Assembly (NCBI GenBank): GCA_934216155.1
Contig: CAKQBK010000060.1
Span: forward strand, 1-17,226
Length of the DNA: 17,226 nt
Direction: 5' to 3'
DNA from: an uncultured Dialister sp.
Lineage (GTDB): Bacteria; Bacillota; Negativicutes; Veillonellales; Dialisteraceae
Positions 217 through 16,126 of the stretch are shown here, in pieces. The stretch's first letter is position 1. Every line of letters begins with the position of its first letter. Under the pieces are notes generated by a model, which saw only the letters and a list, made by a program, of their open reading frames with translations, was not told the DNA's origin and ran no database searches. The position numbers and the translations under genes were made by a program.

Positions 217-513
217 TAGCTAGGGATTGGGGATTAGGGATTAGAAACCTGAAACCGTGATGCGCTAAAAGGTTTATAGATTCATAGGTTCGAAGGTTCG
301 GGTTAGTGGCGCTAAGGTTCTGAAGTGGCTGATGTTTCTCGAATGTGCCTCTTGTGGTAAGTCCTCATGATTCGTAGGCCGAACCTGAGAACCTTGTTCA
401 ACCTGTCAATGAGGCTATCGGAAAATTCAGAGAACCTTCAGCACCTTCAGTCCCCTCAGAACCCTTTCACCACTAGCCCGAACCTTTGAACCTTCGAACC
501 CATGAACCTTTCT
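217..513. repeat. Modular palindromic intergenic repeat, block 1
   Basis: The block opens with the telomere-like word GGGATTGGGGATTAGGG (222-238), then GAAACC words. A left arm at about 269-333 (GGTTCGAAGGTTCGGG, then GTGGCGCTAAGG, then GTTCTGAAGTGGCTGA) is mirrored by a right arm at about 443-513 (CACCTTCAG, CCACTAGCCCGAACC, CCTTCGAACCCATGAACC). The block is therefore one large imperfect palindrome. Its centre (314-393) holds a core that recurs at 4647-4727 with one substitution and one inserted base. It fills the gap before the SPFH gene, and no coding frame in it is convincing. Its role is unknown. Confidence 0.85.
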
Positions 514-562
514 AAATTTTTCTATTTCATAAACATTTTCATTTATAAAAGGAGGAAATCCT

Positions 563-2065
563 ATGGGTCTCATCAAAGCAGCAATCGGTTCGGTCGGCGG
601 GGTATTGGCCGACCAGTGGAAAGAATTTATCTTCTGCGACCAGCTCGACATGAATACACTGGTAGCCAAGGGGCAGAAGAAGACCAGTTCTTTCGGACGG
701 AGTTCAAATACCACGGCAGAAGACAATATCATTTCCAATGGCTCCCGCATTGCGGTCGGTGTCGGTCAGTGCATGATGATCGTGGAGCAGGGGAAAGTGG
801 TGGAAATGTGTAATGAGCCTGGGGAATTTGTCTATGACAAATCTTCGGAACCTTCCATTTTCACTGGTGATTTGAAAACCGGCGTGAAGGATATGTTCAA
901 GAAGATGGGCGAACGCTTTACCTTCGGCGGAGACACCGGAAAGGACCAGCGGGTGTACTATTTCAACATGAAGGAAATCATGGGAAATAAGTACGGGACT
1001 CCTGGGGAAGTGCCTTTCAAATCCTTTGATAATGTGACAGGACAGGTGCTCTTAATTCGCCTCCGCTGTTTCGGGGAGTATAGCTATCGCATTACGAATC
1101 CCCTTCTTTTCTATACCAATGTGGCCGCAGGCAATGGGGAGGACCATTTCGACCGGAGCACCTTGGATAGTCAACTCCGTTCCGAACTCCGCACCGCACT
1201 GCAGCCGGCTTTTGCCAAGATTTCCGCCATGCGTATCGACTATACCGAGCTGGTGGGCCATACCATGGAAATCGCCGATAGTCTGAATGAAATTCTCTCG
1301 AAGAAATGGAGAGACCTGCGTGGTATCGAAATCGTATCTTTCGGTGTCGACAGCATCAAAGCCAATGAAGATGATGAAGCAAAGATTCAGAAAGCCCAGA
1401 TGGGGATGACTATGTCGAACCCCATGATGGCCCAAGGCATTATCGCTGATGCCACCGCCGATGCTATGAGAACAGCTGCTGGAAATCAAGGCGGTATGGG
1501 CGCTATGATGGGATTCATGGGCATGAATATGGCCGGCAATGTAGGCGCCAATATGTACGGACAGGCAGGAAATCAGGCACAGCAGATGGGAATGCAGCCA
1601 CCCATGGGGATGGCACCCCAGCCCATGCAACCCCAGGTAGGCGCCATGGCAGCCGCTCCGGCTCCGACGCCGCAGACACCGCAACCTGCGGGCTGGACTT
1701 GCAGCTGTGGACAGACGGGAAATACAGGAAAGTTCTGTATGAGCTGCGGCAGTCCGAAACCCGAGCCGAAACCGCCGGAAGGTGCGTGGGACTGCGAATG
1801 CGGACAGAAAGGAAATACAGGAAAATTCTGCATGGGTTGCGGAAAACCTAAACCCGCTGCTACTGCTACGGAGCCCGAAGGCTGGACCTGCAGCTGCGGC
1901 ACTGTAAACCAAGGAAAATTCTGTATGAATTGTGGGAATAAGAAGCCTGAAGATGCGCCGCTCTATAAATGTGATAAATGCGGCTGGCGTCCGGCGGATC
2001 CCCATCATCCCCCAAAATTCTGCCCCCAGTGCGGCGATCCCTTCGATGAGAAGGATAGGGAATAG
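563..2065 (+). CDS. SPFH/Band 7 protein with C-terminal zinc-ribbon array (YdjI-like)
   Basis: This 500-residue protein begins with an SPFH/Band 7 region (about residues 20-290) of the type found in Bacillus YdjI and 'virion core protein' annotations. No signal peptide is visible. A flexible linker (about 280-375) is rich in Met, Gly, Gln, Ala and Pro, with 19 Met in about 80 residues. Four zinc ribbons follow. Three are short CxC...CxxC modules (C380/C382/C392/C395, C411/C413/C423/C426, C443/C445/C454/C457). The last is a CxxC...CxxC ribbon (C470/C473/C487/C490). The ATG is preceded by AAAAGGAGG at 548-556. In Bacillus, YdjI helps target PspA to the membrane together with YdjG and YdjH. The next two genes here resemble those partners, so a membrane scaffold or stress role is a reasonable inference. 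SPFH plus ribbons is clear; the function is not. Confidence 0.9.
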   Translation: MGLIKAAIGSVGGVLADQWKEFIFCDQLDMNTLVAKGQKKTSSFGRSSNTTAEDNIISNGSRIAVGVGQCMMIVEQGKVVEMCNEPGEFVYDKSSEPSIFTGDLKTGVKDMFKKMGERFTFGGDTGKDQRVYYFNMKEIMGNKYGTPGEVPFKSFDNVTGQVLLIRLRCFGEYSYRITNPLLFYTNVAAGNGEDHFDRSTLDSQLRSELRTALQPAFAKISAMRIDYTELVGHTMEIADSLNEILSKKWRDLRGIEIVSFGVDSIKANEDDEAKIQKAQMGMTMSNPMMAQGIIADATADAMRTAAGNQGGMGAMMGFMGMNMAGNVGANMYGQAGNQAQQMGMQPPMGMAPQPMQPQVGAMAAAPAPTPQTPQPAGWTCSCGQTGNTGKFCMSCGSPKPEPKPPEGAWDCECGQKGNTGKFCMGCGKPKPAATATEPEGWTCSCGTVNQGKFCMNCGNKKPEDAPLYKCDKCGWRPADPHHPPKFCPQCGDPFDEKDRE

Positions 2066-2090
2066 GTAGCGGTTAGTAGTAGGCGGTAAA

Positions 2091-2670
2091 AGCGTCGGCT
2101 AACTGCATGCTGCCACCTCAGAACCTTCAGAAACTTTTCCAACCTATAGCTAGGAGTAATTAGGGATTGGGGATTAGAAACCCGAAGCCGTAAAGCTTAT
2201 TTCTAACAAAGAAATATTACCGCTAGAGATAAAAGGTTCATGGGTTCGAAGGTTCAAAGGTTCATCCTACGGATATTGAAGATTTACCGTAATAGGCACA
2301 TTTGAAAAGACTGAGTAACTGGAGAACCCTGAGCGTCTTGTCAAACCTGTAGCCAGTGGCCAGTAGCTAGGTCTTAGGCAGTGCATAGTGGCGATAAACA
2401 GCGCCCCTCCTTGGAGAAAGGGCGACAGCTTTTAGGGAAAGTGACAACTGGTAAAAATATACCCTATCCCCCAGCGAGGCTATGCTTGCCGGCCTCTTCC
2501 TGGGGAAGGGGCTTACTCCCCCTAAACCCATTCTGCACATTCAATGCACCTAAGCCACTTCAGAACCCTCAGAACCCTTTGCCGCCAAGCGGTATTATCG
2601 CAATTGCTTTTTGCCTAAACGGTTCCCTACAACCTGAGAACCCTAAGAACCCTTTCCAACCTGTAATAAA
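2091..2670. repeat. Modular intergenic repeat, block 2, with GC-rich cassette
   Basis: About 620 bases separate the SPFH gene from the next true start. The block contains the word GGGATTGGGGATTAG at 2163-2177 and then GGTTCATGGGTTCGAAGG (about 2235-2252). A segment at 2266-2308 matches the reverse complement of the core repeat at 14690-14715. A GC-rich cassette at 2464-2515 (CTATCCCCCAGCGAGGCTA, then a CTTCCTGGGGAAGGGG hairpin) recurs at 6711-6760. At 2556-2664 is a module also found before the genes at 4851 and 6900. An open frame runs through from 2381, but its upstream part is repeat sequence and is not protein-like. Confidence 0.8.
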
Positions 2671-2686
2671 AAATGAGGTGATTATT

Positions 2687-3787
2687 ATGGCTGATACATC
2701 GGTCAGTTACTCTTGTCCGAACTGCGGCGGGCCTTTGGAATTTGCGCCGGGCAGTACAAAAGTGACTTGTCCGTACTGTGATACGGAGTTTGAGACTGCC
2801 ACCATTGAAAATTTATTTGCAAAGAAACAAGAGCAGGCCATCGAGGCGGAGAAAGCGAAGGCGGCCAAGTGGGATACCGCATCTGCTGGTGATGAATGGA
2901 GCCAGGAAGAAGCAGCCCATATGCGGGCAGTGACTTGTTCATCCTGTGGGGCAGAAATCGTGAGTGATGAAAATACCATGGCTACAGAATGTTGTTATTG
3001 TGGCAATCCTACCATGCTTCCGTCCAAGTTTGATGGCATGCTGAAGCCGGATTTCGTTATTCCGTTCAAAAAGACGAAGGAAGATGCGGTGGCGGCATTG
3101 AAAGATTTCTACAAAGGGAAACGATTGCTTCCTGCTGCCTTCACGGCTAATAACCGGGTGGAAAGCATCCAGCCCATGTATGTGCCTTTCTGGCTTTTCG
3201 ATTCGAAAGTCCATGCCACGGCAGAATATCGGGCAGAAAATGACAATATCATCGATACGGAAGATGAAACCATCACGGAGACCAGTGTGTATCGCTGCGA
3301 TCGCAGTGGGGACATGAGTTTCTCGAAAATTCCGGTAGACGGCTCGGAGAAGATGGATGATACCTACATGGAAAGTATCGAGCCTTTTGATTACAATGAC
3401 ATGGTGCCCTTTAATCCAGCCTACTTGACAGGATGCTTGGCAGATAAATATGATGTAGATGCCGAAGCTTCCGTACCGAGAGCCGACGCTCGTATCGAGC
3501 AAAGTGCTATGGATGTACTGCAGGATACGGTTTCAGACTATAGCCGGACGGAATGTCAGGAACATTTTATTACCAAGGAAGGAGACACCGTGTCTTATGC
3601 CATGGCACCCGTATGGATTCTGACCACTAAGTACCAAGGAAAGCCCTATACTTTCATGATGAATGGGCAGACAGGGAAGATGGTGGGCCGCCTTCCTTAT
3701 GACAATACAAAATCCTACATCTATATGTTGGCAGTCACTGTGGTACTGACGCCAATTCTATTTTTCCTCATCCAGTGGATGAGTTAA
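2687..3787 (+). CDS. Membrane-anchored protein with two TFIIB-type zinc ribbons (YdjG-like)
   Basis: The start is ATG at 2687, after GAGGTG at 2674-2679. The open frame extends 102 codons further upstream, but that part reads through repeats and is rejected. The 366-residue product has a first zinc ribbon (C10, C13, C28, C31), a Lys/Glu-rich linker (about 45-65) and a second ribbon (C84, C87, C102, C105). A long uncharacterised domain follows (about 115-335), with one membrane helix near the C-terminus (about 345-364). The ribbons would face the cytoplasm if this is a tail-anchored protein. The layout resembles Bacillus YdjG, a partner of the SPFH protein YdjI. A TPM-like gene begins 13 bases after the stop with its own strong ribosome binding site, so the two are very likely co-transcribed. 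Confidence 0.88.
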   Translation: MADTSVSYSCPNCGGPLEFAPGSTKVTCPYCDTEFETATIENLFAKKQEQAIEAEKAKAAKWDTASAGDEWSQEEAAHMRAVTCSSCGAEIVSDENTMATECCYCGNPTMLPSKFDGMLKPDFVIPFKKTKEDAVAALKDFYKGKRLLPAAFTANNRVESIQPMYVPFWLFDSKVHATAEYRAENDNIIDTEDETITETSVYRCDRSGDMSFSKIPVDGSEKMDDTYMESIEPFDYNDMVPFNPAYLTGCLADKYDVDAEASVPRADARIEQSAMDVLQDTVSDYSRTECQEHFITKEGDTVSYAMAPVWILTTKYQGKPYTFMMNGQTGKMVGRLPYDNTKSYIYMLAVTVVLTPILFFLIQWMS

Positions 3788-3800
3788 AAAGGAGGAAAAG

Positions 3801-4580
3801 ATGATGAAAAAGATACTGACAATGGTCATGGCCCTCATCGCTTGCCTCCTTCTGGTCTTCGGTATGACGACAAAAAGCCAGGCAGCGACCTATCTGACTG
3901 ATAAGAATGGCATCTTAACGAAAGAAGAAAGTCAGGAAATCATTTTTTCTTTACAGGAAATCGAAAAGCACTACGGCATACGGGCTTCAGTCTACATCAC
4001 GGATAAAGTGGATGGTGATGCCCTGAAGATTTCCCAAGCTATGATGGACAAAATTCATGAGAAAGAAAAAGATATCGGTCATATCCAACTCTTCATAGCG
4101 ACCGAAAGCCGGGATTGGTCCCTCATGACCGATGCCATCGCAGGAGAAAGAATCACCGATAATGAAGGATTACCTACTATTCGCGACCAAGTGGTCCCAT
4201 CATTAAAAGACAATCATTGGGCTGGCGCGGTAAAAGGCTATGTGGCTGGCACGAATGACATGCTTTCCTACTATGAAAAAGAAGGAAAGGCCTATACGGG
4301 AGATGAGGAAGGTTTCCTGGGGAGCCTAGGCATTGCATTCTTGGTCGCTTTGGCTATGGGCTTCATTGTGCGGCATCAACTCATCGCTAGCATGAGCAAT
4401 GTCATTCCGGCAGCCAACGCGAAAGTCTATCTCGACGAAGGTAGCTTCCAATTGACAAGAAAAGAGGATACCTTCCTCTTCATGAATGTGACAAGAACCA
4501 AAAAAGAGAAAAAAGCAGAAGCCAGCGAAAGTACCGATCGGTCCTCTTCCGGATCCGGAGGAATTGGGGGAAAGTTCTAA
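3801..4580 (+). CDS. Secreted, membrane-anchored TPM-like domain protein (YdjH/YgcG-like)
   Basis: This 259-residue protein has an N-terminal signal peptide (about 1-28, ending KSQAA). An extracytoplasmic domain at about 33-160 resembles the TPM family (TLP18.3/Psb32/MOLO-1), including a 'YLTDKNGILT' opening and a 'YGIRASVYITDK' strand. A membrane helix spans about 172-191. The C-terminal tail is charged and then Ser/Gly-rich (SSSGSGGIGGKF), like the Gly-rich tails of YgcG-type proteins. Two in-frame ATGs, 3801 and 3804, follow GGAGG at 3791-3795; 3801 is 5 bases and 3804 is 8 bases from it, so either could be used. It sits 13 bases behind the double zinc-ribbon gene and completes a trio like Bacillus YdjI/YdjG/YdjH. 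The TPM call rests on pattern, not on a profile search. Confidence 0.82.
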   Translation: MMKKILTMVMALIACLLLVFGMTTKSQAATYLTDKNGILTKEESQEIIFSLQEIEKHYGIRASVYITDKVDGDALKISQAMMDKIHEKEKDIGHIQLFIATESRDWSLMTDAIAGERITDNEGLPTIRDQVVPSLKDNHWAGAVKGYVAGTNDMLSYYEKEGKAYTGDEEGFLGSLGIAFLVALAMGFIVRHQLIASMSNVIPAANAKVYLDEGSFQLTRKEDTFLFMNVTRTKKEKKAEASESTDRSSSGSGGIGGKF

Positions 4581-4619
4581 TCAAGCGTGAAACCGGTAGA
4601 GTCCCTTGGTCGTATTTCG

Positions 4620-4830
4620 CTAGTAAGGAAAGGTTCTGAAGGTGCTAAGGGTTCTGAAGTGGCTGATGTTTCTCGAACGTGCCTCTTGTGGTAAGTCCTC
4701 ATGATTCGTAGGCCGAACCTGAGAACCCTCAGAACCCTTTCTAACGAAGCGGGATTCATCGCAATTGTCTCTTTCCCCAAAACGGCTCTCTACACCCTGA
4801 GCACCCTGAGAAACCTGTCTAACCTGTCGT
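4620..4830. repeat. Modular intergenic repeat, block 3
   Basis: The core at 4647-4727 (GTTCTGAAGTGGCTGATG through GTAGGCCGAACC) is almost identical to 314-393. It is followed at about 4732-4827 by the module containing AAGCGG, ATCGCAATTG, AACGGCTC, and CACCCTGAG. That module ends in CTAACCTGT ten bases before the AAGGAG of the 5'-nucleotidase gene. Related copies of this second module lie at 2556-2664 and 6778-6880. No coding frame is supported. Confidence 0.85.
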
Positions 4831-4850
4831 CATTATAAGGAGAGTCCATT

Positions 4851-6452
4851 ATGAAATTATCCATCAGAAAACTCGCCGCATCCGTCGTATTGGCCTTGGC
4901 CATGCCGCTGTGCTCTTATGCCGATGTGGTCATTCTTCATACCAATGATACCCACTGCGGGATTGATAGAAATTTAGGATTTGCGAAAGTGGCAGAGTAC
5001 AAGAAAGAAATGGCCAAAGACCATGGCGCCGTGATTCTAGCCGATGCCGGCGATGCTATCCAGGGGGAACCGGTGGGAAAATTATCCCAAGGGGCCTCGA
5101 TCATTTCTATCTTGAATGCCGTAGGCTATGATTTTGCCATTCCTGGCAATCATGAATTCGATTATGGCATGGAACGATTTCTCGCCTTAGCACCGACCTT
5201 GCAATGCGGCTACTACAGTTCCAATTTCACAGACCTTCGGACCGGAAAATTGGTGCTTCCCCCCTACAAACTCTTCACACTGGATGGAAAGAAAATCGCC
5301 CTTGTAGGAGTCACCACGCCAGAAAGTCTGGTCTCTTCTACACCAGCCTATTTCAAAGATAAAGCAGGCACATGGATTTATGGTTTCGCGGAAGATGAAA
5401 AAGGGGATGCTCTCTATGGGGCTGTGCAAAAAGCCGTAGACAGTGCACGCAAAGAAGGAGCGGAGTATGTCATCTTAGTCGGGCATTTAGGCACCAATGG
5501 TTCTATCGATGTCTGGTCTTCAGGCGCCGTCATCGCTCATACCTCTGGCATCGATGCAGTGATTGACGGTCATTCTCATGAAGTGTATTCTAAAGTTCTG
5601 ACCAATAAAGATGGAAAGCCCGTGGTCCTGGCACAGACTGGGACGAAACTAGAAACCCTAGGGAAACTCACGATTTCTGATGCTGGAGAGATTACTTCTG
5701 AACTGGTGAAAGAAATTTCCGCAGCAGATCCGAAGGTGGAAGCCTTAGTGAAAAAAGAAAATGAAGCAGTAGAAAAAGAGCTGTCCCAGAAAGTCGGCAC
5801 AGCGACAATTCACTTCGTGACAGATATCGATGGTGTCCGTCGCGTACGGTCGGGAGAAACGAACTTGGGTGACTTTGCTGCCGATGCCATTCGAGAAACT
5901 TTCCATACCGATGTGGCCATTCTGAATGGCGGTGCTCTTCGTGGAGACATTTTGCCCGGTGACCTAACTTACAAAACTTTGATGACCGTCTATCCCTTTG
6001 GAAATATGATGGCCGTCTACCAAGTGACAGGGCAGCAGATCTTGGATGCCCTGGAAGTGGGCGCTATGAATTGTCCCGAAGAAAATGGCGGTTTCCTGCA
6101 AGTATCGGGTATGACCTATGACATCCATACCGGCATCAAGAGCGGTGTGAAACTGGATGAAAAAGGCGATTTCCTAGGTATCGAAGGAGAGCGGCGTGTA
6201 GCGAATGTATACATCGGCGGCGAGCCCCTGGATCCCATGGAAGACTACACCGTAGCTGGCAATGCGTATCTTCTAAAATATGGCGGCAATAGCATGACCA
6301 TGTTCCAGAGCGGCTATCTCTTGCAAGATACCGATGTGGCTGATATCGAAACACTGGTCAACTTCGTTAAAGCCAAAGGCGGCATAGTAGGAGAAGGCTA
6401 TAAAAATCCGGAAGGAGAAGGACGGATACGGATTATTTCGGTGACGGAGTAG
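4851..6452 (+). CDS. Secreted 5'-nucleotidase / UshA-family metallophosphoesterase
   Basis: The 533-residue product should hydrolyse nucleotides or related phosphate esters outside the cytoplasm. A signal peptide covers about 1-24. The metallophosphoesterase motifs are complete: HTNDTH (30-35), DAGDAIQG (65-72), GNHEFD (99-104), GHLG (211-214) and DGHSHE (239-244), giving the two-metal site. The C-terminal substrate-binding domain (about 315-533) shows ETNLGDFAADA (336-346), NGGALRGDI (359-367) and PFGN (382-385). No sortase signal, SLH domain or lipobox is seen, so a periplasmic product is likely in a diderm cell. AAGGAG at 4837-4842 supports the ATG. The length is normal for the family. Substrate preference (AMP, UDP-sugar, NAD) cannot be read from sequence. 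Repeat blocks isolate it from both neighbours. Confidence 0.95.
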   Translation: MKLSIRKLAASVVLALAMPLCSYADVVILHTNDTHCGIDRNLGFAKVAEYKKEMAKDHGAVILADAGDAIQGEPVGKLSQGASIISILNAVGYDFAIPGNHEFDYGMERFLALAPTLQCGYYSSNFTDLRTGKLVLPPYKLFTLDGKKIALVGVTTPESLVSSTPAYFKDKAGTWIYGFAEDEKGDALYGAVQKAVDSARKEGAEYVILVGHLGTNGSIDVWSSGAVIAHTSGIDAVIDGHSHEVYSKVLTNKDGKPVVLAQTGTKLETLGKLTISDAGEITSELVKEISAADPKVEALVKKENEAVEKELSQKVGTATIHFVTDIDGVRRVRSGETNLGDFAADAIRETFHTDVAILNGGALRGDILPGDLTYKTLMTVYPFGNMMAVYQVTGQQILDALEVGAMNCPEENGGFLQVSGMTYDIHTGIKSGVKLDEKGDFLGIEGERRVANVYIGGEPLDPMEDYTVAGNAYLLKYGGNSMTMFQSGYLLQDTDVADIETLVNFVKAKGGIVGEGYKNPEGEGRIRIISVTE

Positions 6453-6454
6453 TC

Positions 6455-6880
6455 TAGGGATTGGTAGCTAGGCCTTAGGAAGTATAGTAGCCAGGATAAT
6501 AGTGAGGAATTAGGAATGAGGAGTGAGGAATGGAGGTACGGCGCACAACTTATGAAGCGCCGCGAGTTTTAGATAGGCTATAAGAGGTAGTAGAGGTAGC
6601 CCCTTTCCACAGGAAGGGGGTAGGGGGATAGGAAGAAATTCCGCGATATGTAAGACTAGCGGAAAGTCAGTAGTCAATTCTGAATTTCTGTCAGAGGTCA
6701 AGAACACGCTCTATCCCCCGGCGAGGCTACGCCCGCCGGCCCCTTCCTAGGGAAGGGGCTCTGGCGTGAAGCCCTCAGCCACTTCAGAACCCTTTCTAAC
6801 TAAGCGGTATGATCGCAATTGCCTCTTTCCTCAAACGGCTCCCTACACCCTGAGAACCTTGAGAACCCTGTCTAACCTGT
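6455..6880. repeat. Modular intergenic repeat, block 4, with inverted GC-rich cassettes
   Basis: This gap of about 447 bases holds the words TAGGGATTGGTAGCTAGG and GGAATGAGGAGTGAGGAATG near its start. Next come two inverted GC-rich cassettes: 6598-6632 (CCCCTTTCC, ACA, GGAAGGGGG, then TAGGGGGATAGG) and 6711-6760 (CTATCCCCC, then CCCCTTCC/GGAAGGGG). The second matches the cassette at 2464-2515. The last 100 bases (6778-6880) are the module shared with 2556-2664 and 4732-4827, including the palindrome GCAATTGC (6815-6822), and end with CTAACCTGT. No credible gene is present on either strand. Confidence 0.82.
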
Positions 6881-6899
6881 ATAAAAGGAGGACCCCACT

Positions 6900-7613: not shown

Positions 7614-7650
7614 AAAAGGTCCGGTAAAAAAAAGTCCATTTTAAACACGC

Positions 7651-7803
7651 AAAAAATCCGGATGTTCCATACCTTTACCTATGTCGGCGCACCCTGAATC
7701 GGCGCAGGTGCCGTGCAGTGTACATGAAAGTACCACGTCTTTGCTGTCGTCAGAACGCCACGCGTACATTCAGCAGGGAAGTGATGGAACATTTCCGGAT
7801 TTT
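7651..7803. repeat. 153-bp inverted-repeat element, possible structured RNA or small mobile element
   Basis: A 20-base arm at 7651-7670 (AAAAAATCCGGATGTTCCAT) pairs with 7784-7803 with only a two-base bulge. The interior holds smaller pairings: CTGAAT near 7693 with ATTCAG near 7768, GGCGCAGGTGCC, and GTAC-ATGAAA-GTAC at 7720-7733. The interior is more GC-rich than its AT-rich flanks, and the right arm runs into TTTCAATTTTTT. It could be a folded RNA with a terminator-like end, or a MITE-like element. No clear target duplication is seen. None of its words match the other intergenic repeats. Confidence 0.55.
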
Positions 7804-7864
7804 CAATTTTTTAAATATATCGTGAACATCAATTGACCCAAAGCACTGACTTTGAAACGGGTCT

Positions 7865-8070
7865 ACATTTCGTTTTCAGTACCCGATGGACCCGACGACC
7901 TACCAGATCTGCCCTTTCATCAGTACTTCTTCCGTCTGGTCTTTTGCGCAATTAGATATCAGAGACCGGAAAAAGGACCTAGTAAAGGATGCACGCATAA
8001 GTGCGTCGGATTTCATGTCTATAGTATACATGATACTGGCAAAAAAAGAAAGAGGACGCATGGGGATACG
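7865..8070 (+). pseudogene. Possible N-terminal transposase relic
   Basis: The frame beginning with ATG at 7886 reads DIRDRKKDLVKDARIS, then ASDFMSIVYMILAKK. This loosely resembles the N-terminal part of some IS4-type transposases. No ribosome binding site precedes it. Just upstream, 7834-7863 can form an imperfect GACCC...GGGTC hairpin. After about 8070 the frame runs straight into the core of the modular repeat (GSEGSEVAEV), so any original gene is cut there. The opposite strand is also open but is no more convincing. This is a weak call based on residue pattern alone. Confidence 0.25.
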
Positions 8071-8071
8071 A

Positions 8072-8461
8072 GGGTCTGAAGGTTCTGAAGTGGCTGAGGT
8101 TTCTCGAATGTGCCTCTTGTGATAAATCCTCATGATCTGTAGGCCGAATCCGAAAACACTCAGAACCCTTTCTAACCTGTTTGTCGTATCGTCATGCTTC
8201 GGCACGACCTACGGCCGGCTCCGCATGATGGCTTACGGTTAGTGGCACATTCGAGGAACCTGAGGATCTTGAGAACTCTGTCAAACCTGTCAGTGAGGCT
8301 AGCGGAAAATGCGTAACACTTCAGCCACTTCAGAACCCTCAGAACCTTAGCGCCACTAGCCCGAACCTTCGAACCCTTGAACCTTTTTATCTCTAGCGGA
8401 AGCGTCTCTATGTTTCGTTAAGGTCTACAGTTTCAGGTTCCTAATCCCAAATCCCTAGCTA
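8072..8461. repeat. Modular palindromic intergenic repeat, block 5
   Basis: The block starts with CTGAAGGTTCTGAAGTGGCTGAG (8076-8098), which pairs with CTTCAGCCACTTCAGAACC (from 8319). Between them are the core (to about 8150), a diverged inverted core (about 8227-8262) and the word AACCTGTCAGTGAGGCTAGCGG (about 8284-8305). The right arm continues with CCACTAGCCCGAACCTTCGAACC (about 8353-8375), TCTCTAGCGG and CCTAATCCCAAATCCC (about 8441-8456). The left arm lacks its outer part because the possible transposase relic abuts it. It ends about 10 bases before the next ribosome binding site. Confidence 0.83.
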
Positions 8462-8482
8462 CTAAACAAAAAGGAGGCTTTT

Positions 8483-9238: not shown

Positions 9239-9284
9239 GAATAAGCCATGCTGTTAAGGTAAGCGAAAATTTCGATGATTACTA

Positions 9285-9380
9285 TGGTATCAAGGTTCAT
9301 AGGTCCTTTTCGCGCCATATGACAGGCTACGCTTTCTCGGAACATTCGGTGTACTTTCGAACCCTTAGAACCTTGTCTCG
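9285..9380. repeat. Degenerate copy of the modular repeat, block 6
   Basis: Within the 199-base gap, AAGGTTCATAGGTCC (9292-9306), CGGAACATTCGG (9339-9350) and TTTCGAACCCTTAGAACC (9355-9372) match words of the other blocks, but the palindrome has decayed. It is the most diverged block in the window. Confidence 0.5.
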
Positions 9381-9437
9381 CTATCTAAGCCATATCGAAT
9401 GACTCCCAACTAACATGACTGGAAATGAGGAAAGTAG

Positions 9438-11840
9438 GTGAGCAGAATGAGAAGAGTGATGGATTTTGTGTTTCATATTCTTCTTGTTCTGCTTTTATGT
9501 TGCCCTTTTTCGGCGAAAGCGGGACTCGTTCTTTATGATAGTCGCTTTGGAAATCCGGTGGGGATGGCACTAGAAGACGCATTGCCTGCGTCCTATACCG
9601 TAGAAGGGCGAGAGGAGGAGCTTTCTCGTTTTTGGGGCGATAGAGAGGTATCGGCGGTGGAGCTCTATGATTTCCAAGCCGATGTATTCCGCCGGAATCG
9701 GATGATTTCTAGTACGTGGTATCCTTTGTATATGGTAGATATTGTACTGGCTGTAAGAAATGAAAATCAAGACATGTATTCTTGGCAGGATTTGCTCAGA
9801 AAACCGGTGACCGTTTGTATCCCTGCCGATTCCCCTCGGATGCAGATGGTGGTCATGGCCGTTTCCTATGGCATGAGCGGAGAGTTTGACCCGGCGGTAG
9901 GAATTCATTATTTCCAGAAGCTCGAAAGAGAAGGACGGCTTCGGACGGATACCAGCTATCAAGAAGCCCATTATTTGCATAAAGTGGTCCGGGAAAAGGC
10001 CGATGTGTATATTCTTCCTGATATAGAAGCTGCCCATTGGATAGAGCAGGGAGAAAAATTTCATCTGGTACATCCGGCGGAAGGGACTTTATCGTTTCAG
10101 CGAGGAATTCTTTCTAAAGAAATCTTACCTCTGTCTAAGGACATCAGTAGTGAAAAATTGGATGAAAAAGGATACCATGTCTCTCCGGGGGAAAAGGCCT
10201 ATCCAGTGCAAGACCTCTTATCTTTTGCTCAGGATATAGAGCCTATCCCTGGACAAATGAAAGAGAAAGTTTTCGGTATCACTTCCATGGTGTCTCTCTT
10301 CCGCGTGCCTCATCTAGTGTACTATAGCGGATTTCTATTTCTTTTCATTTTATGGGGTGGCCATATCCGGCGGCGGATGGCGTCGCCGCGGTTGAAACGA
10401 CTAGCTCTTGTGCTGACCGTGGTTTCTGTTCTGTGGATTGGACAGCGCATTTTCAAATTGACTGTACCATCAGAAAATGAGACCTTGCTTCGCTATTTAT
10501 GGTATAGCTATTATATTTTTTTCAGCCTCTTTGTGACCATTTGCATGGATTTGGGCTATAGCCAGCGGCGTCGCGGGGCAAATTATGTTTCTGTGCCTTG
10601 GATACTAGGCCTGGGAAATCTATGGCTATCCCTTTTGGTGCTGACCAATGATTTCCATCAATGGGTCTTCACTTTTCCAGAAGGACTCTCAGTGGCCGAC
10701 GCTATCCATGGGTATGGCCCTGGATATTACTTGATTCTCGGAGCCTATGGGCTGCAATTTCTATGGGTTAATGGACTCCTTTTTACAGAGGCGAAGAAAC
10801 AGAAACTCCTGGGCTTTCGTCAACTCTTGCCTTTAGGCGTGAGCGTCCTCTATGGCCTCTATGTGGTGGCCTATATCCAAGGCAGTTCGCTGGTTTCCTA
10901 TACAGAGCTGGTATGGGTGACCATTTTATGGGCCTTTTTATGGTTAGAGCTCATGCTTGATACCGGGCTCATCTTGTCCAATGACGGCTATGCTAATTTC
11001 TGCACCTATTCCAACTTAGCCATGGAAATCCAAGACGCTGCGGGCCATGTACAGTATCGTTCTCAGCGCATTCCGAAAGAACCATCGGAGTATATCGAAC
11101 GAATGACCATGCCCATACAAGGCGGCCAAGTGGTATGGTATCGCGATGTCAGGCAGCTCCGCGAAAAACAACGAGAACTCAAACTAGCGAGAGATGCGAT
11201 GCAGCGGGCCTATGACTTGGATAAGAAAGAAGAAATGATCCGGCGGTCCTATATCAAACTTTTGATGGAAAGAAAAATTTACGATGAATTGCAAGAGGTA
11301 TTGCGGACAAAAGGGGCTTTAATTTTGCAGTATACGAAATTTCTAGAAACCGCAGTCCCTGGCAATGCCGCCGATGAAGCCGTGAGTCGCCTCAATGTGC
11401 TGGCCTCCTACATCAAGAAACGCTGTGTCATGATGCTGCGGGGCAAAGAGGACCATAGCCTTCAAGGAAAAGAACTGTACCTGGCCTTACAAGAACTTTT
11501 CCGCTATTTGGAACGGACAGGGCTGAAAGTGCTGCTGGAGTTTCAAGTGGAAGGAAATCTACCAACAGAAAAAGCACTGGCCCTCTATGACTTCATAGAG
11601 CAACTTTGCGAAAGTGCCGTGGTAGGTGGAGAAAATCACATGGTCTGCCATGTGAAAGAAGAAGAAACTAGCTATACCGTAAAAGTCCTCCTGGACCATC
11701 GGCTGTGGATACTGGGATTCATGCGGCAGATCCGAGACGATACCCGCCTAAAAGACCCCACCATTCGCATCCACTGTAGAGACTTGGAATATGCCTATAG
11801 TGTGGAGATACAGGTTAGAAAAGGTTCTGAAGGTTCTTAG
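9438..11840 (+). CDS. Sensor protein: solute-binding-like domain, 7TM region, degenerate kinase end
   Basis: The product has 800 residues from GTG 9438 (GAGG at 9427-9430), or 797 from ATG 9447 (AGGTG just upstream). A signal peptide (about 1-28) precedes an extracytoplasmic domain (about 29-285) that resembles a type 2 solute-binding fold, with the hinge-like segment SWQDLLRKPVTVCIP. Seven membrane helices follow (about 294-507). The TNDFHQWVF segment (403-411) is typical of histidine-kinase N-terminal 7TM regions. A short PAS-like linker (about 515-570) and a helical region (about 572-670) come next. The last part looks like a decayed HATPase: the expected N-box reads LCESAVVGG and no DxGxG follows. 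No phospho-accepting His motif is evident. It probably senses a ligand and acts with the downstream kinase. The last residues, RKGSEGS, and the stop are encoded by repeat sequence. Confidence 0.85.
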   Translation: MSRMRRVMDFVFHILLVLLLCCPFSAKAGLVLYDSRFGNPVGMALEDALPASYTVEGREEELSRFWGDREVSAVELYDFQADVFRRNRMISSTWYPLYMVDIVLAVRNENQDMYSWQDLLRKPVTVCIPADSPRMQMVVMAVSYGMSGEFDPAVGIHYFQKLEREGRLRTDTSYQEAHYLHKVVREKADVYILPDIEAAHWIEQGEKFHLVHPAEGTLSFQRGILSKEILPLSKDISSEKLDEKGYHVSPGEKAYPVQDLLSFAQDIEPIPGQMKEKVFGITSMVSLFRVPHLVYYSGFLFLFILWGGHIRRRMASPRLKRLALVLTVVSVLWIGQRIFKLTVPSENETLLRYLWYSYYIFFSLFVTICMDLGYSQRRRGANYVSVPWILGLGNLWLSLLVLTNDFHQWVFTFPEGLSVADAIHGYGPGYYLILGAYGLQFLWVNGLLFTEAKKQKLLGFRQLLPLGVSVLYGLYVVAYIQGSSLVSYTELVWVTILWAFLWLELMLDTGLILSNDGYANFCTYSNLAMEIQDAAGHVQYRSQRIPKEPSEYIERMTMPIQGGQVVWYRDVRQLREKQRELKLARDAMQRAYDLDKKEEMIRRSYIKLLMERKIYDELQEVLRTKGALILQYTKFLETAVPGNAADEAVSRLNVLASYIKKRCVMMLRGKEDHSLQGKELYLALQELFRYLERTGLKVLLEFQVEGNLPTEKALALYDFIEQLCESAVVGGENHMVCHVKEEETSYTVKVLLDHRLWILGFMRQIRDDTRLKDPTIRIHCRDLEYAYSVEIQVRKGSEGS

Positions 11841-12157
11841 GGTTCTGAGGTTCGCCGAATGTGCCTCAAAACCAGGAATTAGGGATTAGAAACCCAAAGC
11901 CGTAGGCCCTCCATCTAACATTGAACTTTTTCCCGCTAGTGCTGCCCCCCTGCCTACGGCATATCTTCCCCAAAAAAGGGGCGACGAGACGCTAGAGGTA
12001 AAAAGGCTAGCGCCTTGGTTTCCCCCATTTTGGGGAAAAGGTGGTGCAAAGCACCAAAAGGGGAATGCCAGGCCGAAAATGGGATATGTTGGACTGGCCG
12101 TAAGATGCGTTGAACCTCAGAACCTTCAGTCCCCTCAGAACCCTGCCCAACCTGTAA
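11821..12157. repeat. Modular intergenic repeat, block 7, with GC-rich hairpins
   Basis: The block begins inside the sensor gene with AAGGTTCTGAAGGTTCTTAG, giving its stop codon, and continues to CGCCGAATGTGCCTC. It then has ATTAGGGATTAGAAACCC (11879-11896). Two hairpins follow: CTTCCCC-AAAAAA-GGGGCG (about 11965-11983), and TTTCCCCC-ATTTT-GGGGAAA (12019-12038) next to GTGC-AAA-GCAC (12043-12053). CTTCAGTCCCCTCAGAACC and CCAACCTGT end the block just before the AAGGAG of the kinase gene. No U-tract makes either hairpin a clear terminator. Confidence 0.8.
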
Positions 12158-12174
12158 ATAAGGAGATGAATCCA

Positions 12175-13587
12175 GTGGCCAATATGTATATTTTGCCAGA
12201 CAGTCTGCTAGTCGGCCTAGTCATAGTCGGCGTGGGGCTGGTGATAGCAGAAAGCTTTCTCTATTATCACTTGCTGCCCCTTCGCAGCTTTCGGGAGTGG
12301 AAACGGGCTTTTTTAGAAGTGATGAGTCTAGTCTTACTGATTGGTTCTCTATACTTTCCTTACGAAGTCTTAACACTGCGAGGTGATGGCATCCCGGCTT
12401 TGCACTTTCTAGATACGAGCCGATATATCATAGCCATCAGCGGCATCGTAAATGGATGCTACTGGCTTAGCCGTGGAGCGGGGAGTGTGTATATCTTAGG
12501 GGCTGCCGTTTTAACTATACCACTATGGGATGATTTCTTACCCTATACCTTGTGCGGAGCCATGTTCCTCCTTGGATGGCGCATTCGGGTATTACTGCCA
12601 CAAGCCTATGTCCAATACCATCAGCAAATCACCTATTACTCCATCCAGCATGCCATAGACAGTCTCGATGAAGGTATCTTGGTTTGTAAGGAAAAAGGAG
12701 AACCGGTCCTAGTGAATCGTTGCATGGAAGTAGTAATGGAGAAACTTTTGGGAACAACGCTCAGGAATGGCAATATTTTCTGGCATATTCTGCAACAGGG
12801 GGCCACCAAAGGGGTACGGTGGGAACGCTTAGGGGCGAAAATGCTTTTTCGCCTCCCCTCTGGGGAGAGCTGGATCCTTTCTAGAGAACCTATAGACAGG
12901 GTAGATACCACCATTTGGCAGATTACGGCCGCCAATGTAACGGACTTAGAACGTATCAATGAAGAGCTAGCAGCCAGCAATGAAATGTGGCAGGAAAGAA
13001 ATCAGAAAATGAAAGATCTACTTCTGCATCTGGTGGATATCCAAAGTAAAGAAACCATCCGGGACATTCGGATGAAAGTGCATGACCTCATGGGCCAGCG
13101 TATCAGCTTATTGCAGCAGATATTAAACAATAAAGATGTGAGCCAATACAAGACCATTACGCCGCTGCTAGATAACTTATTGAGAGATATGGAAAAGGAT
13201 ATTTCCATCGACCCGGCGAAACTTTTGTCAGAAATGATTCACACCTATCAGGATTTGGGAATCACTGTCCATGTAGAAGGGATTCTTCCGTCACAGCCTC
13301 AAGTGAGCCGCATTTTGGTAGAAATCATCCGGGAAGCCATGACCAATGCCATTTGCCATGGAAAGGCCAATGAAATATCTATTTCCTTTACAGGGAAAGA
13401 CCGACAATGCGTGCAAATTTCCGACAATGGCATGGGCTGCCAAATTCCGATCCAAGAAGGCGGCGGCCTCTCCGGGGCTAGACGAAAGATGAAAGCCTTG
13501 GGCGGTACCGTACGTTTTAAGAATCAACCGCACTTTACTTTGATTTTGGAAACAGGAAATCTGAGAGATATGCCGCATACATCGTAG
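12175..13587 (+). CDS. Membrane sensor histidine kinase, HisKA_3 (NarX/LiaS-like) family
   Basis: The start is GTG 12175, nine bases after AAGGAG (12160-12165). ATG 12166 is too close to the site and ATG 12184 too far. The open frame extends upstream only through repeats. The 470-residue protein has about five membrane helices (about 11-137), a PAS-like region (about 155-255) and a coiled helix. The dimerisation/phosphoacceptor region carries H303 in RMKVHDLMGQRIS. The HATPase has an N-box (EIIREAMTNAICHG, 383-396), SDNGMG (416-421) and GGGLSGARRKMKALGG (429-444). All residues expected for an active kinase are present. It should phosphorylate the NarL-type regulator encoded at 14008 and may take its signal from the degenerate 7TM sensor encoded upstream. 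Confidence 0.92.
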   Translation: MANMYILPDSLLVGLVIVGVGLVIAESFLYYHLLPLRSFREWKRAFLEVMSLVLLIGSLYFPYEVLTLRGDGIPALHFLDTSRYIIAISGIVNGCYWLSRGAGSVYILGAAVLTIPLWDDFLPYTLCGAMFLLGWRIRVLLPQAYVQYHQQITYYSIQHAIDSLDEGILVCKEKGEPVLVNRCMEVVMEKLLGTTLRNGNIFWHILQQGATKGVRWERLGAKMLFRLPSGESWILSREPIDRVDTTIWQITAANVTDLERINEELAASNEMWQERNQKMKDLLLHLVDIQSKETIRDIRMKVHDLMGQRISLLQQILNNKDVSQYKTITPLLDNLLRDMEKDISIDPAKLLSEMIHTYQDLGITVHVEGILPSQPQVSRILVEIIREAMTNAICHGKANEISISFTGKDRQCVQISDNGMGCQIPIQEGGGLSGARRKMKALGGTVRFKNQPHFTLILETGNLRDMPHTS

Positions 13588-13604
13588 CTATGATAAAATG
13601 AAAA

Positions 13605-13980
13605 GGAATAGGAAAAGGGATTAGTGGCTAGGCCTTAAGAAAAGCGAAACCGTAAAGCTTACATTATACAAAGAGTATTACCCGTTAGAGATACCCGAGC
13701 TAAAAGGCTCCTGGGTTCGGGATGATTAGCGTATATGGATAGAGTCATATTCGAGAAACCTGAGTAGCCTGAGAACCTCGTCTAACCTGTCAGTGAGACT
13801 AGCGGAAATTGCGTAGAACCTCGGAACCTTCAGAACCTTTTCACTACTAGCCCGAACCTATGAACCTTTGAGCCCTTTATAACCGTGTTGTACATGAAAC
13901 ATGACGCTAGTGGTTTACGGTTTCGGGCCACCGGCTACTATATTCTGTCAACTGCCTACGGCCAACTGCTAACTGCTAAC
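13605..13980. repeat. Modular palindromic intergenic repeat, block 8
   Basis: The left half contains GGGATTAGTGGCTAGGCC (13618-13635), GAAACCGTAAAGCTTA and GGCTCCTGGGTTCGGG. The right half mirrors these with CTAGCCCGAACCTATGAACC (about 13847-13866), GTTTACGGTTTCGGGCC and CCGGCTACTA. In the middle is AACCTGTCAGTGAGACTAGC (about 13784-13803), as in block 5. The end is GCCAACTGCTAACTGCTAAC (13961-13980). An open frame from 13885 runs through this right half into the response regulator but is not its true start. Confidence 0.82.
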
Positions 13981-14007
13981 ATTTATTTATTCTATGGGGG
14001 AAAGCCT

Positions 14008-14628
14008 ATGATTCGTCTTATGATTGTAGATGACCAGAAAATTTTGCTCGATGGGCTAGTGAAGCTCTTTGAACATTCCGACACCGTCCAGGTGGTGAAA
14101 CAGCTTTCCTTTTCAGAAATAGCAGAAGTGGCCGCCGATGTGGTGCAGCCAGATATCATTCTGATGGATATCTGCATGGAAGGTCGGACCAGCGGCATCG
14201 AGACCACACGTCGTATCAAACAACGACGACCAAACCAGAAAATCGTTATCATGACAGGCTTCCCTGATGTCCACTTCGTAGAAATGGCGAAAGAAGCGGG
14301 AGCTGATGGATTTATTTACAAAGAAAGCTCTGCGAAAGATTTCATCGATCACCTGGCACGAACCATGCAAGGGGAGCGCATCTTTCCGAATGTAAAAGAA
14401 AAAACAACCTTCGGCTTCTATCATGCCCAGCTGACAGAGCGGGAACTGGAAATCCTGAAATACATCTGTAAAAATATGTCCTACCAAGAAATCGCTGATG
14501 TGCTCCATATCACAAAACGGACCGTCAGCTTCCATGTGAGCAACATGCTGGCTAAGACAGGTCATAAAAGCATCGTAGGCCTGGCCGTGGAAGCCGCTGA
14601 AAAAGGATATGCTACGGGAAGTGAGTGA
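14008..14628 (+). CDS. NarL/LuxR-family response regulator
   Basis: The true start is most likely ATG 14008, after GGGGGAAA at 13996-14003. The longer frame from 13885 is made of repeat sequence. The 206-residue protein has a receiver domain (about 1-120) with D8/D9, the phosphorylation site D54, T83 and K105. A LuxR-type helix-turn-helix follows (about 141-205: LTERELEILKYICK, then SYQEIADVLHITKRTVSFHVSN). It is the likely partner of the HisKA_3 kinase encoded upstream, binding DNA when phosphorylated. Target genes are not evident; the adjacent porin and small secreted genes are candidates only by proximity. The modular repeat begins within a few bases of the TGA stop. Confidence 0.94.
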   Translation: MIRLMIVDDQKILLDGLVKLFEHSDTVQVVKQLSFSEIAEVAADVVQPDIILMDICMEGRTSGIETTRRIKQRRPNQKIVIMTGFPDVHFVEMAKEAGADGFIYKESSAKDFIDHLARTMQGERIFPNVKEKTTFGFYHAQLTERELEILKYICKNMSYQEIADVLHITKRTVSFHVSNMLAKTGHKSIVGLAVEAAEKGYATGSE

Positions 14629-14633
14629 GGGGG

Positions 14634-14806
14634 CTGAAGGTTCTGAAGTGGCTGAGAGATTCTCAGGTTCGCCGAACATGCCTCTTACGGTAAATCTTCA
14701 GTATCCGTAGGCCGAACCTATGAACCTTCGAACCCATGAACCTTTTCTAATCCCTAATCCCTAGCTACTGGCCACCAGCTACTGCATTCCGCCAACTGCT
14801 AACTAC
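14634..14806. repeat. Modular intergenic repeat, block 9
   Basis: The core is at 14636-14720 (CTGAAGGTTCTGAAGTGGCTGAG, GCCTCTTACGGTAAATC, GTAGGCCGAACC). It is followed by CCTTCGAACCCATGAACC (about 14725-14742), CTAATCCCTAATCCCTAGC (14747-14765), GCTACTGGCCACCAGC and GCCAACTGCTAACT. It ends where the bidirectional terminator begins. Its core in reverse orientation matches 2266-2308. Confidence 0.85.
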
Positions 14807-14811
14807 AATAT

Positions 14812-14852
14812 AAAAAACGGCATGGACTATCCAAGTCTTCATGCCGTTTTTT
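14812..14852. terminator. Bidirectional rho-independent terminator
   Basis: AAAAAACGGCATG (14812-14824) pairs exactly with CATGCCGTTTTTT (14840-14852) around a 15-base loop. The A-tract and T-tract make it work on both strands. It lies between the convergent response regulator and porin genes, 5 bases from the porin stop. Confidence 0.93.
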
Positions 14853-14857
14853 GCTTA

Positions 14858-16036
14858 TCAAAAGTACGCTGTCACACTGGTGCCTAGCACATATTCATGG
14901 AAATTGTCGGTCAAAGGACCATCGGATTTATTTTTCAGGGAGAAACCTTCCACAGCCCATACCAGGCCTGGGGTCAGGACATAATCGATACGAGCGCCCC
15001 AGCCTTTGAAGCTCATGCGCTGGAAGAAGGCGGTATCACCATCCATAGTATGGGCGATGATGGAAGCCTGCGGTTGGTTGTAGTAGCGGACCCAGATTTC
15101 ATAAGTTCCCCCTTTTTCTGGTTTCGCATCGCCATAGGTGATAGACGCTACATAGCCTCCTTCGTGGGCGGTGTAATTATCGGCTTTGTGCCGGCCGTGG
15201 GCATAGAGGAAATCCATGCCGAAAGTCCAGTCTTCATTCGGTGAGTAAGCTACATTCCATTCCCCGATACGCTGCCTATCGAATTTACTTCCTGACCGTC
15301 CGGCAGAGAGGCCTAAGAAATGCAAGTATTGTGCTGTAGAACCATCGAAACTCTTGGAATGGTTGGTCTTACTTTTCAAATCCAGATAGGCCAGGTGGGA
15401 TAGCCACTTGCCGGTTTCACGGCGATTTTCAAGAATAAATCCTTCTTTCTTCTCTGGTCCTTTAGATACCGTATTTCCATAGAAGAACGCAAAGCGCCCG
15501 GTGGAGGAGTCGGAGTCACCATAGCGCAAGCGCAGTCCGTCTACTTTTTTATCGATTACATTACCATCGGCCAAGTAATAATTGAAGCGTCCAGCTTCTG
15601 CTTTGAAAGAGTTTTTCACATATTCCAGGTAGAGGCGGCCCATGTACAAATGGTGATTGGATTTCACAGTATCTTGTCCCAGCTTGTCCGACCGATTGTC
15701 CTCCCACTGGGTCTTGATAGCCAGCTCCGGTGTCACATGGATGACAGGAAATAATCGGAAGCGGCGGGTTTCCATGATGATTTTATGATCCTTCCGCTGA
15801 CCTACTTGATGATACCGAAAGCGGCCCTCTCCAAAGAGCCAACGATAATCTCCATGGATTTCAAACCACGAGGGCTTTTTTCTTGCATCTTCTGCGTCAG
15901 CTAAGGCCGTAGGCATCTCAGAGAGACTTTCTGTTTTTTCCACATCCATAGTTGGATGGTTAGAGGCGCCGAGCACTGCAGAGGGGAGACAAAGCAGGCA
16001 GAATGTGATGAGTCGGTATAGATGGGAATATTTCAT
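14858..16036 (-). CDS. Outer-membrane porin (Porin_5-like beta-barrel)
   Basis: The 392-residue product has a signal peptide (about 1-24). A variable acidic segment (about 25-55) precedes a barrel of alternating amphipathic strands starting at WFEIHGDYRWLFG. The sequence ends in TAYF, the C-terminal aromatic signal read by the BAM machinery. Conserved-looking barrel segments include METRRFRLFP, GRLYLEYVKNSFKAEAGRFNY and KKVDGLRLRYG, typical of 'putative porin' proteins in Negativicutes. No SLH domain is present, so it is not an OmpM-type tethering porin. AAGGAG eight bases upstream of the ATG, and an extended -10 promoter further up, support the start. It should allow diffusion of small solutes. 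It is strong evidence for a two-membrane organism. Confidence 0.87.
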   Translation of the reverse strand: MKYSHLYRLITFCLLCLPSAVLGASNHPTMDVEKTESLSEMPTALADAEDARKKPSWFEIHGDYRWLFGEGRFRYHQVGQRKDHKIIMETRRFRLFPVIHVTPELAIKTQWEDNRSDKLGQDTVKSNHHLYMGRLYLEYVKNSFKAEAGRFNYYLADGNVIDKKVDGLRLRYGDSDSSTGRFAFFYGNTVSKGPEKKEGFILENRRETGKWLSHLAYLDLKSKTNHSKSFDGSTAQYLHFLGLSAGRSGSKFDRQRIGEWNVAYSPNEDWTFGMDFLYAHGRHKADNYTAHEGGYVASITYGDAKPEKGGTYEIWVRYYNQPQASIIAHTMDGDTAFFQRMSFKGWGARIDYVLTPGLVWAVEGFSLKNKSDGPLTDNFHEYVLGTSVTAYF

Positions 16037-16126
16037 GACTTTTTCTCCTTGGAATTTTTTGTTGGTTGTTTGGGGGATTTCCGCAAACCGCTAATTGCCA
16101 ACTGCTAATTAGTCATACTTTCCTTT

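What the first reader, a model, noticed from the sequence alone, without database searches (positions are those of the whole stretch)
217..16110. A shared vocabulary of palindromic repeats fills almost every gene gap
At least nine intergenic blocks (starting at 217, 2091, 4620, 6455, 8072, 9285, 11821, 13605 and 14634) are built from the same few words in a largely conserved order, mirrored around a centre. A typical full block reads outer GATTAGGGATTAG, GAAACCGTAAAGC, GAGATAAAAGGTTC, GGTTCGAAGGTTCGGGCTAGTGG, a core, then the reverse. Unlike ordinary REP or MITE sequences, these differ in which words they keep, as if spread by recombination or template switching. Such density (about one per gene) is striking and I know of no named family that matches.
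Basis: seen in the sequence. Interest (0 to 1): 0.8.

Follow-up and report, generated by a model that had tools for sequence, protein, structure and literature searches.

The report
Mirrored mosaic repeats between bacterial genes
In this stretch of a bacterial genome the gaps between genes are largely built from one shared set of short repeated DNA words set out in mirror order, and two sampled relatives do much the same with mostly different words, so such gaps seem to be rewritten quickly by a process not yet pinned down.

Summary
The 11 intergenic stretches (4,319 bp, 25% of the window) share 71 between-block matches, against 0 in 20 shuffles and a mean of 0.1 in coding DNA. GAACC pairs at 8- and 9-nt pitch occur 18 and 9 times, 0.04 expected each. 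Of 60 module hits, 57 lie wholly outside genes; 3 overlap one gene's 3' end. The order A-B-C-D-E-F-G-D'-C'-B'-A' holds in blocks not used to set it (29:7, p=0.0015), and GGTTC lies left of GAACC in 8 of 8 blocks.

No block keeps both outer ends; several words are micro-tandem arrays of 7, 8 or 9 nt. The host genome is not held. Related genomes G325 and G327 carry a cousin system with covarying hairpins; the mirror polarity is significant in G327 only. At one orthologous gene pair the gap is 55-58 nt in two relatives and 448-563 nt, in different words, in two others.

Best reading: a BIME/NIME-like mosaic element reshuffled module by module (mechanism inferred). The Y1 transposase domain was not found in G325 or G327, nor in four of six further genomes. 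A new variant of a known kind.

The parts
217..510 (.). Block 1: A C D E F G D' C' (most complete left half)
   Evidence: fold z -5.3
2067..2350 (.). Block 2a: J' D' A B C E' F
   Evidence: fold z -2.1
2464..2664 (.). Block 2b: I D' H F, second composite; F ends 22 nt before ATG 2687
4640..4828 (.). Block 3: D E F H F; last F ends 22 nt before ATG 4851
6711..6880 (.). Block 4: I D' H F, same composite as block 2b; F ends 19 nt before ATG 6900
   Evidence: fold z -2.7 over the spacer
8071..8461 (.). Block 5: D E F (insert) E' F G D' C' B' A' (most complete right half)
   Evidence: fold z -6.0
9294..9373 (.). Block 6: weak, one GGTTC, one GAACC 9-nt pair, one D' hit; no blastn match to other blocks
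   Evidence: fold z +0.1
11810..12155 (.). Block 7: F' (D) C ... D' F; begins inside the last codons of the upstream gene; F ends 19 nt before GTG 12175 (start inferred)
   Evidence: fold z -5.7
13616..13980. Block 8: B F G D' C' J, with a word at its left end shared with other spacers (repeat D13)
   Evidence: fold z +0.1
14634..14804 (.). Block 9: D E C' A' J
   Evidence: fold z -4.4

Best explanation
An interspersed intergenic mosaic element family, similar in organisation to BIMEs and NIMEs. Each copy is a set of modules; some module types are degenerate tandem arrays of 7-nt (GGGATTA), 8-nt (GAACCNNN) and 9-nt (GAACCCTCA) units, set out with dyad polarity (GGTTC on the left, GAACC on the right) around an asymmetric core (E-F-G). 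Shown: the family in the window, its near-restriction to intergenic DNA, module order, mirror polarity, micro-periodicity, and differences in module content among blocks and, for a cousin family, between orthologous spacers of related genomes. Inferred: arrays grow and shrink by replication slippage, and modules are copied between spacers by short-homology recombination, gene conversion or template switching, with insertion tolerated mainly between genes. A dyad-symmetric ancestral element later deleted piecemeal would give the mirror order. In the window the modules lie in spacers between mostly co-directional genes, so they may be transcribed, but no specific function is shown.
For: Window statistics. 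Genomes G325 and G327: 0.31 and 0.42 of sampled intergenic bp repeated between spacers, 21 of 52 and 77 of 139 spacers; G328, G329, G333 and G335 0.00-0.03. These samples differ in size and the G325 one was mostly picked by matches; size-matched, twelve random 80-kb sets from the eight G327 stretches not picked by a match give 0.18-0.37, against 0.000 and 0.004 in 80 kb of G328 and G329. GAACCYTSAGAACC 8 and 5 times in G325 and G327 with 0 reversed-control hits. Polarity in G327 16:2 spacers and, with another word pair, 11:0. Orthologous spacer: 55 nt in G328, 58 in G329, 563 in G327, 448 in G326 in other words. G325 against G327 there: the two hairpins nearest the gene are alike, the next cassette differs, and one stem differs on both sides. 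Of three full-length close homologues of the 800-aa protein, P0001 (99%) ends like the window at block 7 (VRKGSEGS, word D); P0003 ends VRKGLGIRD, which the heptamer word A would encode in frame; P0002 ends at VRK.
Against: The host genome is not held, so copy number and strain variation there are unknown. Modules and order were built from the same blocks (partly met by the held-out test). Insertion of a mobile element is not excluded. Exchange among loci rests in the window on one block's arms. G326 shows repeats (17 of 41 spacers) but no polarity (4:3), and G325 polarity is not significant (6:2, p=0.29). In divergent G327 spacers GAACC is not biased to the right half (12 left, 11 right). Repeat load in G327 is uneven: three of eight 20-kb stretches show no within-stretch match. 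No step of the copying process was observed.
Confidence: 0.55

Rival explanations
1. A MITE-like non-autonomous palindromic transposon, inserted once per spacer by a transposase elsewhere in the genome, with the copies seen here decayed.
For: Dyad order with matching outer words TAGCTAGGGATT / AATCCCTAGCTA; spacer about eight to ten times longer in G326 and G327 than in G328 and G329 at one orthologous pair.
Against: No block keeps both ends, so no terminal-repeat pair or target duplication can be seen. The same spacer is filled with different words in G326 and G327, which would need independent insertions or later turnover. The cassette next to two like hairpins differs between G325 and G327.
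Confidence: 0.2
2. RNA-level regulatory elements: module F ends 19-22 nt before four start codons, and paired GGTTC/GAACC arms or hairpins control translation or mRNA stability.
For: F position in the four spacers where it is the last module; fold z -4.4 to -6.0 in four of ten blocks; in G325/G327 hairpin stems covary: 0.887 of inner stem pairs Watson-Crick against 0.521 (sd 0.019) when partners are re-dealt, 90 distinct units.
Against: Blocks 6 and 8 do not fold below shuffles and four others only mildly. In block 1 the arms match another block's arm better than each other. No terminator-like (16 against 16.9) or promoter-like (27 against 23.1, sd 5.1) excess in the window. By eye at least one G327 array (L108:6209-6964) lies between a terminator-like hairpin and a promoter-like site, so would not be in the downstream mRNA.
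Confidence: 0.15
3. REPINs/REPs spread by a REP-associated tyrosine transposase (RAYT).
For: Extragenic, high density, inverted arrangement.
Against: Pfam Y1_Tnp (PF01797) has 0 matches in G325 and G327, the repeat-rich relatives, but matches in G326 and G333; it is missing from 6 of the 8 genomes searched, so absence is common, and G325 is a draft of many contigs. Short perfect hairpins are not enriched in the window: 1.39/kb against 1.6-2.4/kb in G328, G329, G333 and G335.
Confidence: 0.05
4. Ordinary heptamer-type simple-sequence repeats grown locally by slippage, with the apparent order and mirror arising by chance.
For: Periods 7-9 in the arrays and in the lag profile (0.315, 0.287, 0.304 against base 0.264).
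Against: Modules without a short period (B, E, G, H) are shared between blocks; order p=0.0015 and polarity 8:0.
Confidence: 0.05

Closest known systems
BIMEs (bacterial interspersed mosaic elements)
   Same: Composite extragenic arrays of short units in alternating orientation, with extensive differences in length and distribution between strains (passages of PMC2817692). The G325/G327 arrays of hairpin plus linker look closest.
   Different: In the window the units are largely 7-9-nt tandem arrays, not REP palindromes; hairpins not enriched; the Y1 transposase domain was not found in the two repeat-rich relatives.
NIMEs (neisserial intergenic mosaic elements: dRS3 plus RS)
   Same: Intergenic mosaics combining repeat families; PMC3898611 (passages) gives arrays of 200-2700 bp.
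   Different: dRS3 pattern ATTCCC(N8)GGGAAT: 0 hits in the window with up to 1 mismatch. Mirror polarity of GGTTC/GAACC-type words is not mentioned in the passages I saw.
Intergenic heptamer repeats (TAACTGA of Beggiatoaceae/Cyanobacteria; GGGNATC of Xanthomonas/Nostoc)
   Same: Short tandem units of 7 nt mostly between genes; TAACTGA mostly just upstream of start codons in one genome (abstracts; introduction of the second paper).
   Different: TAACTGA pairs 0 and GGGNATC pairs at chance in the window; here 7-, 8- and 9-nt arrays are combined with unique modules in a mirrored order.
REPINs
   Same: Inverted doublets in extragenic space predicted to form hairpins (abstract of PMC3116915).
   Different: No excess of short perfect hairpins in the window; Y1 transposase domain not found in the repeat-rich relatives.

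Membership tests
REP/REPIN | RAYT (Y1 transposase) in the same genome | tested here: inconclusive
   PF01797: 0 matches in G325 and G327, the relatives with the cousin system; the host genome itself is not held
REP/REPIN | short palindromes or palindrome doublets as the repeating unit | tested here: not met
   window hairpins (stem 6, loop 3-5) 1.39/kb intergenic, below four non-carrier samples (1.59-2.40/kb)
BIME | extragenic mosaic of several module types | tested here: met
   57 of 60 module hits wholly outside genes, the other 3 at one gene's 3' end; ten module types in varied subsets
BIME | alternating palindromic units as backbone | tested here: not met
   hairpin units are frequent in G325/G327 (4.67 and 5.79/kb), not in the window (1.39/kb)
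NIME | dRS3 ATTCCC(N8)GGGAAT repeats | tested here: not met
   0 hits in the window, up to 1 mismatch
MITE | terminal inverted repeats and target-site duplication on the same copy | tested here: not met
   A and A' never hit in the same block
Heptamer SSR families | tandem heptamer TAACTGA or GGGNATC | tested here: not met
   0 hits, and 1 hit against 1.66 expected, up to 2 mismatches; a different heptamer, GGGATTA, 6 against 0.26
Known RNA families | Rfam match in the blocks | tested here: not met
   whole window at gathering: 0 (that scan also missed the group II intron end later found at 6-77); block 1 only hits far below gathering
Any of these | copy number and filled/empty sites in host strains | not testable with these tools
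   no genome held for the window

The most novel reading that the evidence does not exclude
A lineage-wide process writes dyad-symmetric arrays into many intergenic spacers: each species has its own fast-changing vocabulary of 7-9-nt units and hairpins, but obeys one grammar (GGTTC-type words on the left and GAACC-type on the right, largely whatever the gene directions). This would be a spacer-rewriting system that does not need a tyrosine transposase.
Probability: 0.25. Interest if true: 0.8.

Novelty: new variant of a known kind. Interest (0 to 1): 0.6.

Why it matters
If the grammar is general, it gives a case where intergenic DNA grows several-fold (55-58 nt against 448-563 nt at one orthologous pair) and turns over its sequence between related species while keeping polarity and hairpin pairing. 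That would make the question of how mosaic intergenic elements arise without a RAYT testable by comparing sister genomes. It also affects gene calling, since words run into the last codons of one gene and give a probably false N-terminal extension in another.

Tried and rejected
Viral contigs: three pattern scans gave 2, 6 and 0 stretches; the 8 loci carry the searched word and at most one stray short word besides, so chance. Plasmid and phage records: no match to 8060-8480. The word GAACCTTCGAACC in 380 genomes of the class: 5 single hits, against 13 genomes with a reversed-control hit by my reading of the listing, so no sign of it; none in the 80 loci. A blastn search of block 8060-8480 in 61 genomes found only two short matches (25 and 22 bp), both in G325. 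A false ORF of the repeat as protein query found nothing. tRNA origin suggested by GGTTCGAA: no tRNA in the window. Intrinsic terminators or promoters: no excess. RAYT. RNA families. Polarity was not shown in G326 (4:3), G325 (6:2) or control genomes (3:0, p=0.25). Pairwise alignment of G325 with G327 stretches was noisy because ORFs inside arrays are called as coding; I used it only as a guide. Literature: combinations of Dialister, Veillonellaceae or Negativicutes with intergenic repeats found no paper on this (1, 0, 0 and 1 papers listed, the two listed being on other subjects by their titles); the genus name was my guess, and this is one open-access library.
Full report
What was checked. 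The window holds about eleven genes and a broken transposase-like ORF, all on the + strand but one, with wide gaps: 4,319 of 17,226 bp (25%) by my gene map. Pfam names an SPFH/band-7 protein, a TPM-domain protein, a 5'-nucleotidase, a histidine kinase and a response regulator. Its genome is not held. Among 380 held genomes of that class, the nearest for the histidine kinase are G333, G327, G325 and G335 at 42-44%.

The repeats are real. Between-block matches: 71, covering 52% of intergenic bases; 0 in 20 shuffles; mean 0.1 in 20 coding samples. GAACC pairs at 8-nt pitch 18 against 0.04, at 9-nt pitch 9 against 0.04; the GGGATTA pair 6 against 0.26. Tandem Repeats Finder gives period 7 for A and J, 8 for C, and 9 for D and F; the lag profile peaks at 7, 8 and 9 (0.315, 0.287, 0.304 against 0.264). 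GGTTC+GAACC: 61 intergenic, 16 in genes.

Anatomy. Ten modules hit 60 times; 57 hits lie wholly outside genes and 3 at the 3' end of the 800-aa gene. With overlaps removed the blocks read: 1: A C D E F G D' C'; 2a: J' D' A B C E' F; 2b: I D' H F; 3: D E F H F; 4: I D' H F; 5: D E F E' F G D' C' B' A'; 6: D'; 7: F' C D' F; 8: B F G D' C' J; 9: D E C' A' J. Taking the order from blocks 1 and 5 and dropping unranked modules, the others agree 29:7 (p=0.0015). GGTTC lies to the left of GAACC in 8 of 8 stretches that have both (p=0.008). No block has both A and A'. Module F ends 19-22 nt before the start codon in four spacers (ATG 2687, 4851, 6900; GTG 12175, the last inferred from homologues P0038 and P0039). 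Fold z is -4.4 to -6.0 in blocks 1, 5, 7 and 9, -1.3 to -2.7 in 2a, 2b, 3 and 4, and +0.1 in 6 and 8. In block 1, the one block with both C arms, each arm matches block 5's right arm better than its partner.

Relatives. GAACCYTSAGAACC is found in 25 of 380 genomes of the class, more than three times only in G325 (8) and G327 (5), both with 0 reversed-control hits; G059 has 3, and one genome has 3 control hits. Of sampled intergenic DNA, 0.31 (G325), 0.42 (G327) and 0.16 (G326) is repeated between spacers, against 0.00-0.03 in G328, G329, G333 and G335, 0.00 in a 7-kb piece of G331, and 0.04-0.09 in 20-kb samples of G330, G332 and G322. Sizes differ, and most of the G325 sample and 4 of 14 G327 stretches were picked by matches. 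Size-matched, 80-kb sets of the eight G327 stretches that were placed arbitrarily give 0.18-0.37 against 0.000 (G328) and 0.004 (G329); single 20-kb stretches of G327 give 0.00-0.33, all below the window's 0.50-0.52 in 17 kb. In those eight stretches 38 of 78 spacers carry at least 30 bp matching another sampled G327 spacer. Two G327 pieces matched G325 at 80 and 63 places at E<=1e-10, with only 40 of 436 and of 433 candidates scored. Vocabulary overlap with the window is small: of its 77 8-mers present in at least 4 spacers, 12 are among G327's 1,154 commonest and 2 among G325's 78.

Shared grammar. In G327 the mirror polarity holds for GGTTC/GAACC (16:2 spacers, p=0.0013) and for GGGTTG/CAACCC (11:0, p=0.001), not in coding ORFs (41:30, p=0.24); G325 is 6:2 (p=0.29), G326 4:3. 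Half-spacer counts in G327 show the tilt in tandem spacers of both directions and in convergent ones; in divergent ones GGTTC is 7:1 to the left but GAACC is unbiased (12:11). G325/G327 arrays are rich in short hairpins whose stems change on both sides: choosing 159 units (90 distinct) by flanks alone, 0.887 of inner stem pairs are Watson-Crick against 0.521 (sd 0.019, largest of 2,000 re-deals 0.593). The window lacks such hairpins (1.39/kb against 4.67 and 5.79).

Filled and empty sites. Upstream of an ABC-ATPase gene (identified by eye from its sequence), the spacer to the preceding gene is 55 nt in G328, 58 in G329, 563 in G327 and 448, in other words, in G326. G325 at that gene keeps the two hairpins nearest the start, has another cassette before them, and one further stem differs on both sides. 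In another shared spacer G325 has CTAGT-type octamer arrays where G327 has hairpin arrays. At block 7, homologue P0001 (99%) ends like the window, P0003's GLGIRD-stop is what GGATTAGGGATTAGGGATTAG encodes, and P0002 ends at VRK (their DNA was not seen).

Mechanism. Most likely: slippage of micro-arrays plus module exchange among spacers by short-homology recombination or template switching (0.55, inferred). Transposition of a dyad element (0.20) and RNA-level function (0.15) remain open. RAYT spread is unlikely (0.05): Y1_Tnp was not found in G325 and G327, though it is also missing from four of the six other genomes searched.

Place among known things. It works like BIMEs and NIMEs; it is not shown to be a member of either. 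I found no description of it in the open-access library, which does not rule out one elsewhere.

Noticed in passing
window 6-77: 3' end of a group II intron (Rfam Intron_gpII, 44.8 bits against gathering 40); the whole-window scan missed it. G327 carries one too (L108:11768-11829).
   Followed up: partly
window 16906-17226: Start of what I recall as an IS256-type transposase, interrupted, with a perfect 17-bp tandem duplication inside (16980-17013). Family not tested.
   Followed up: no
window 7645-7815: By eye, two inverted stretches around TCCGGATGTTCCAT with a long loop, in the part of spacer 7614-8482 without modules; could be a small relic element.
   Followed up: no
window 2464-2513 and 6711-6760: Module I, a GC-rich repeat unlike the other words; G327 has partly matching DNA for the 6453-6899 spacer (L137:11333-11815, 73% over 62 bp at this module and 96% over 24 bp elsewhere in the spacer).
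   Followed up: partly
window 12079-12174: The histidine-kinase ORF as called from 12079 begins in repeat DNA; homologues P0038 and P0039 start at the residue encoded at 12175, so the first 32 residues are probably not real, although P0037 (98%) is also called with them.
   Followed up: yes
window 9438-11840: An 800-aa protein with no Pfam match; distant homologues in the database table carry PF16927, one named as histidine kinase N-terminal 7TM.
   Followed up: no
L101, L121 (G325): CTAGT-type octamer arrays (period 8 by eye) in spacers, at one place where G327 has hairpin arrays.
   Followed up: partly
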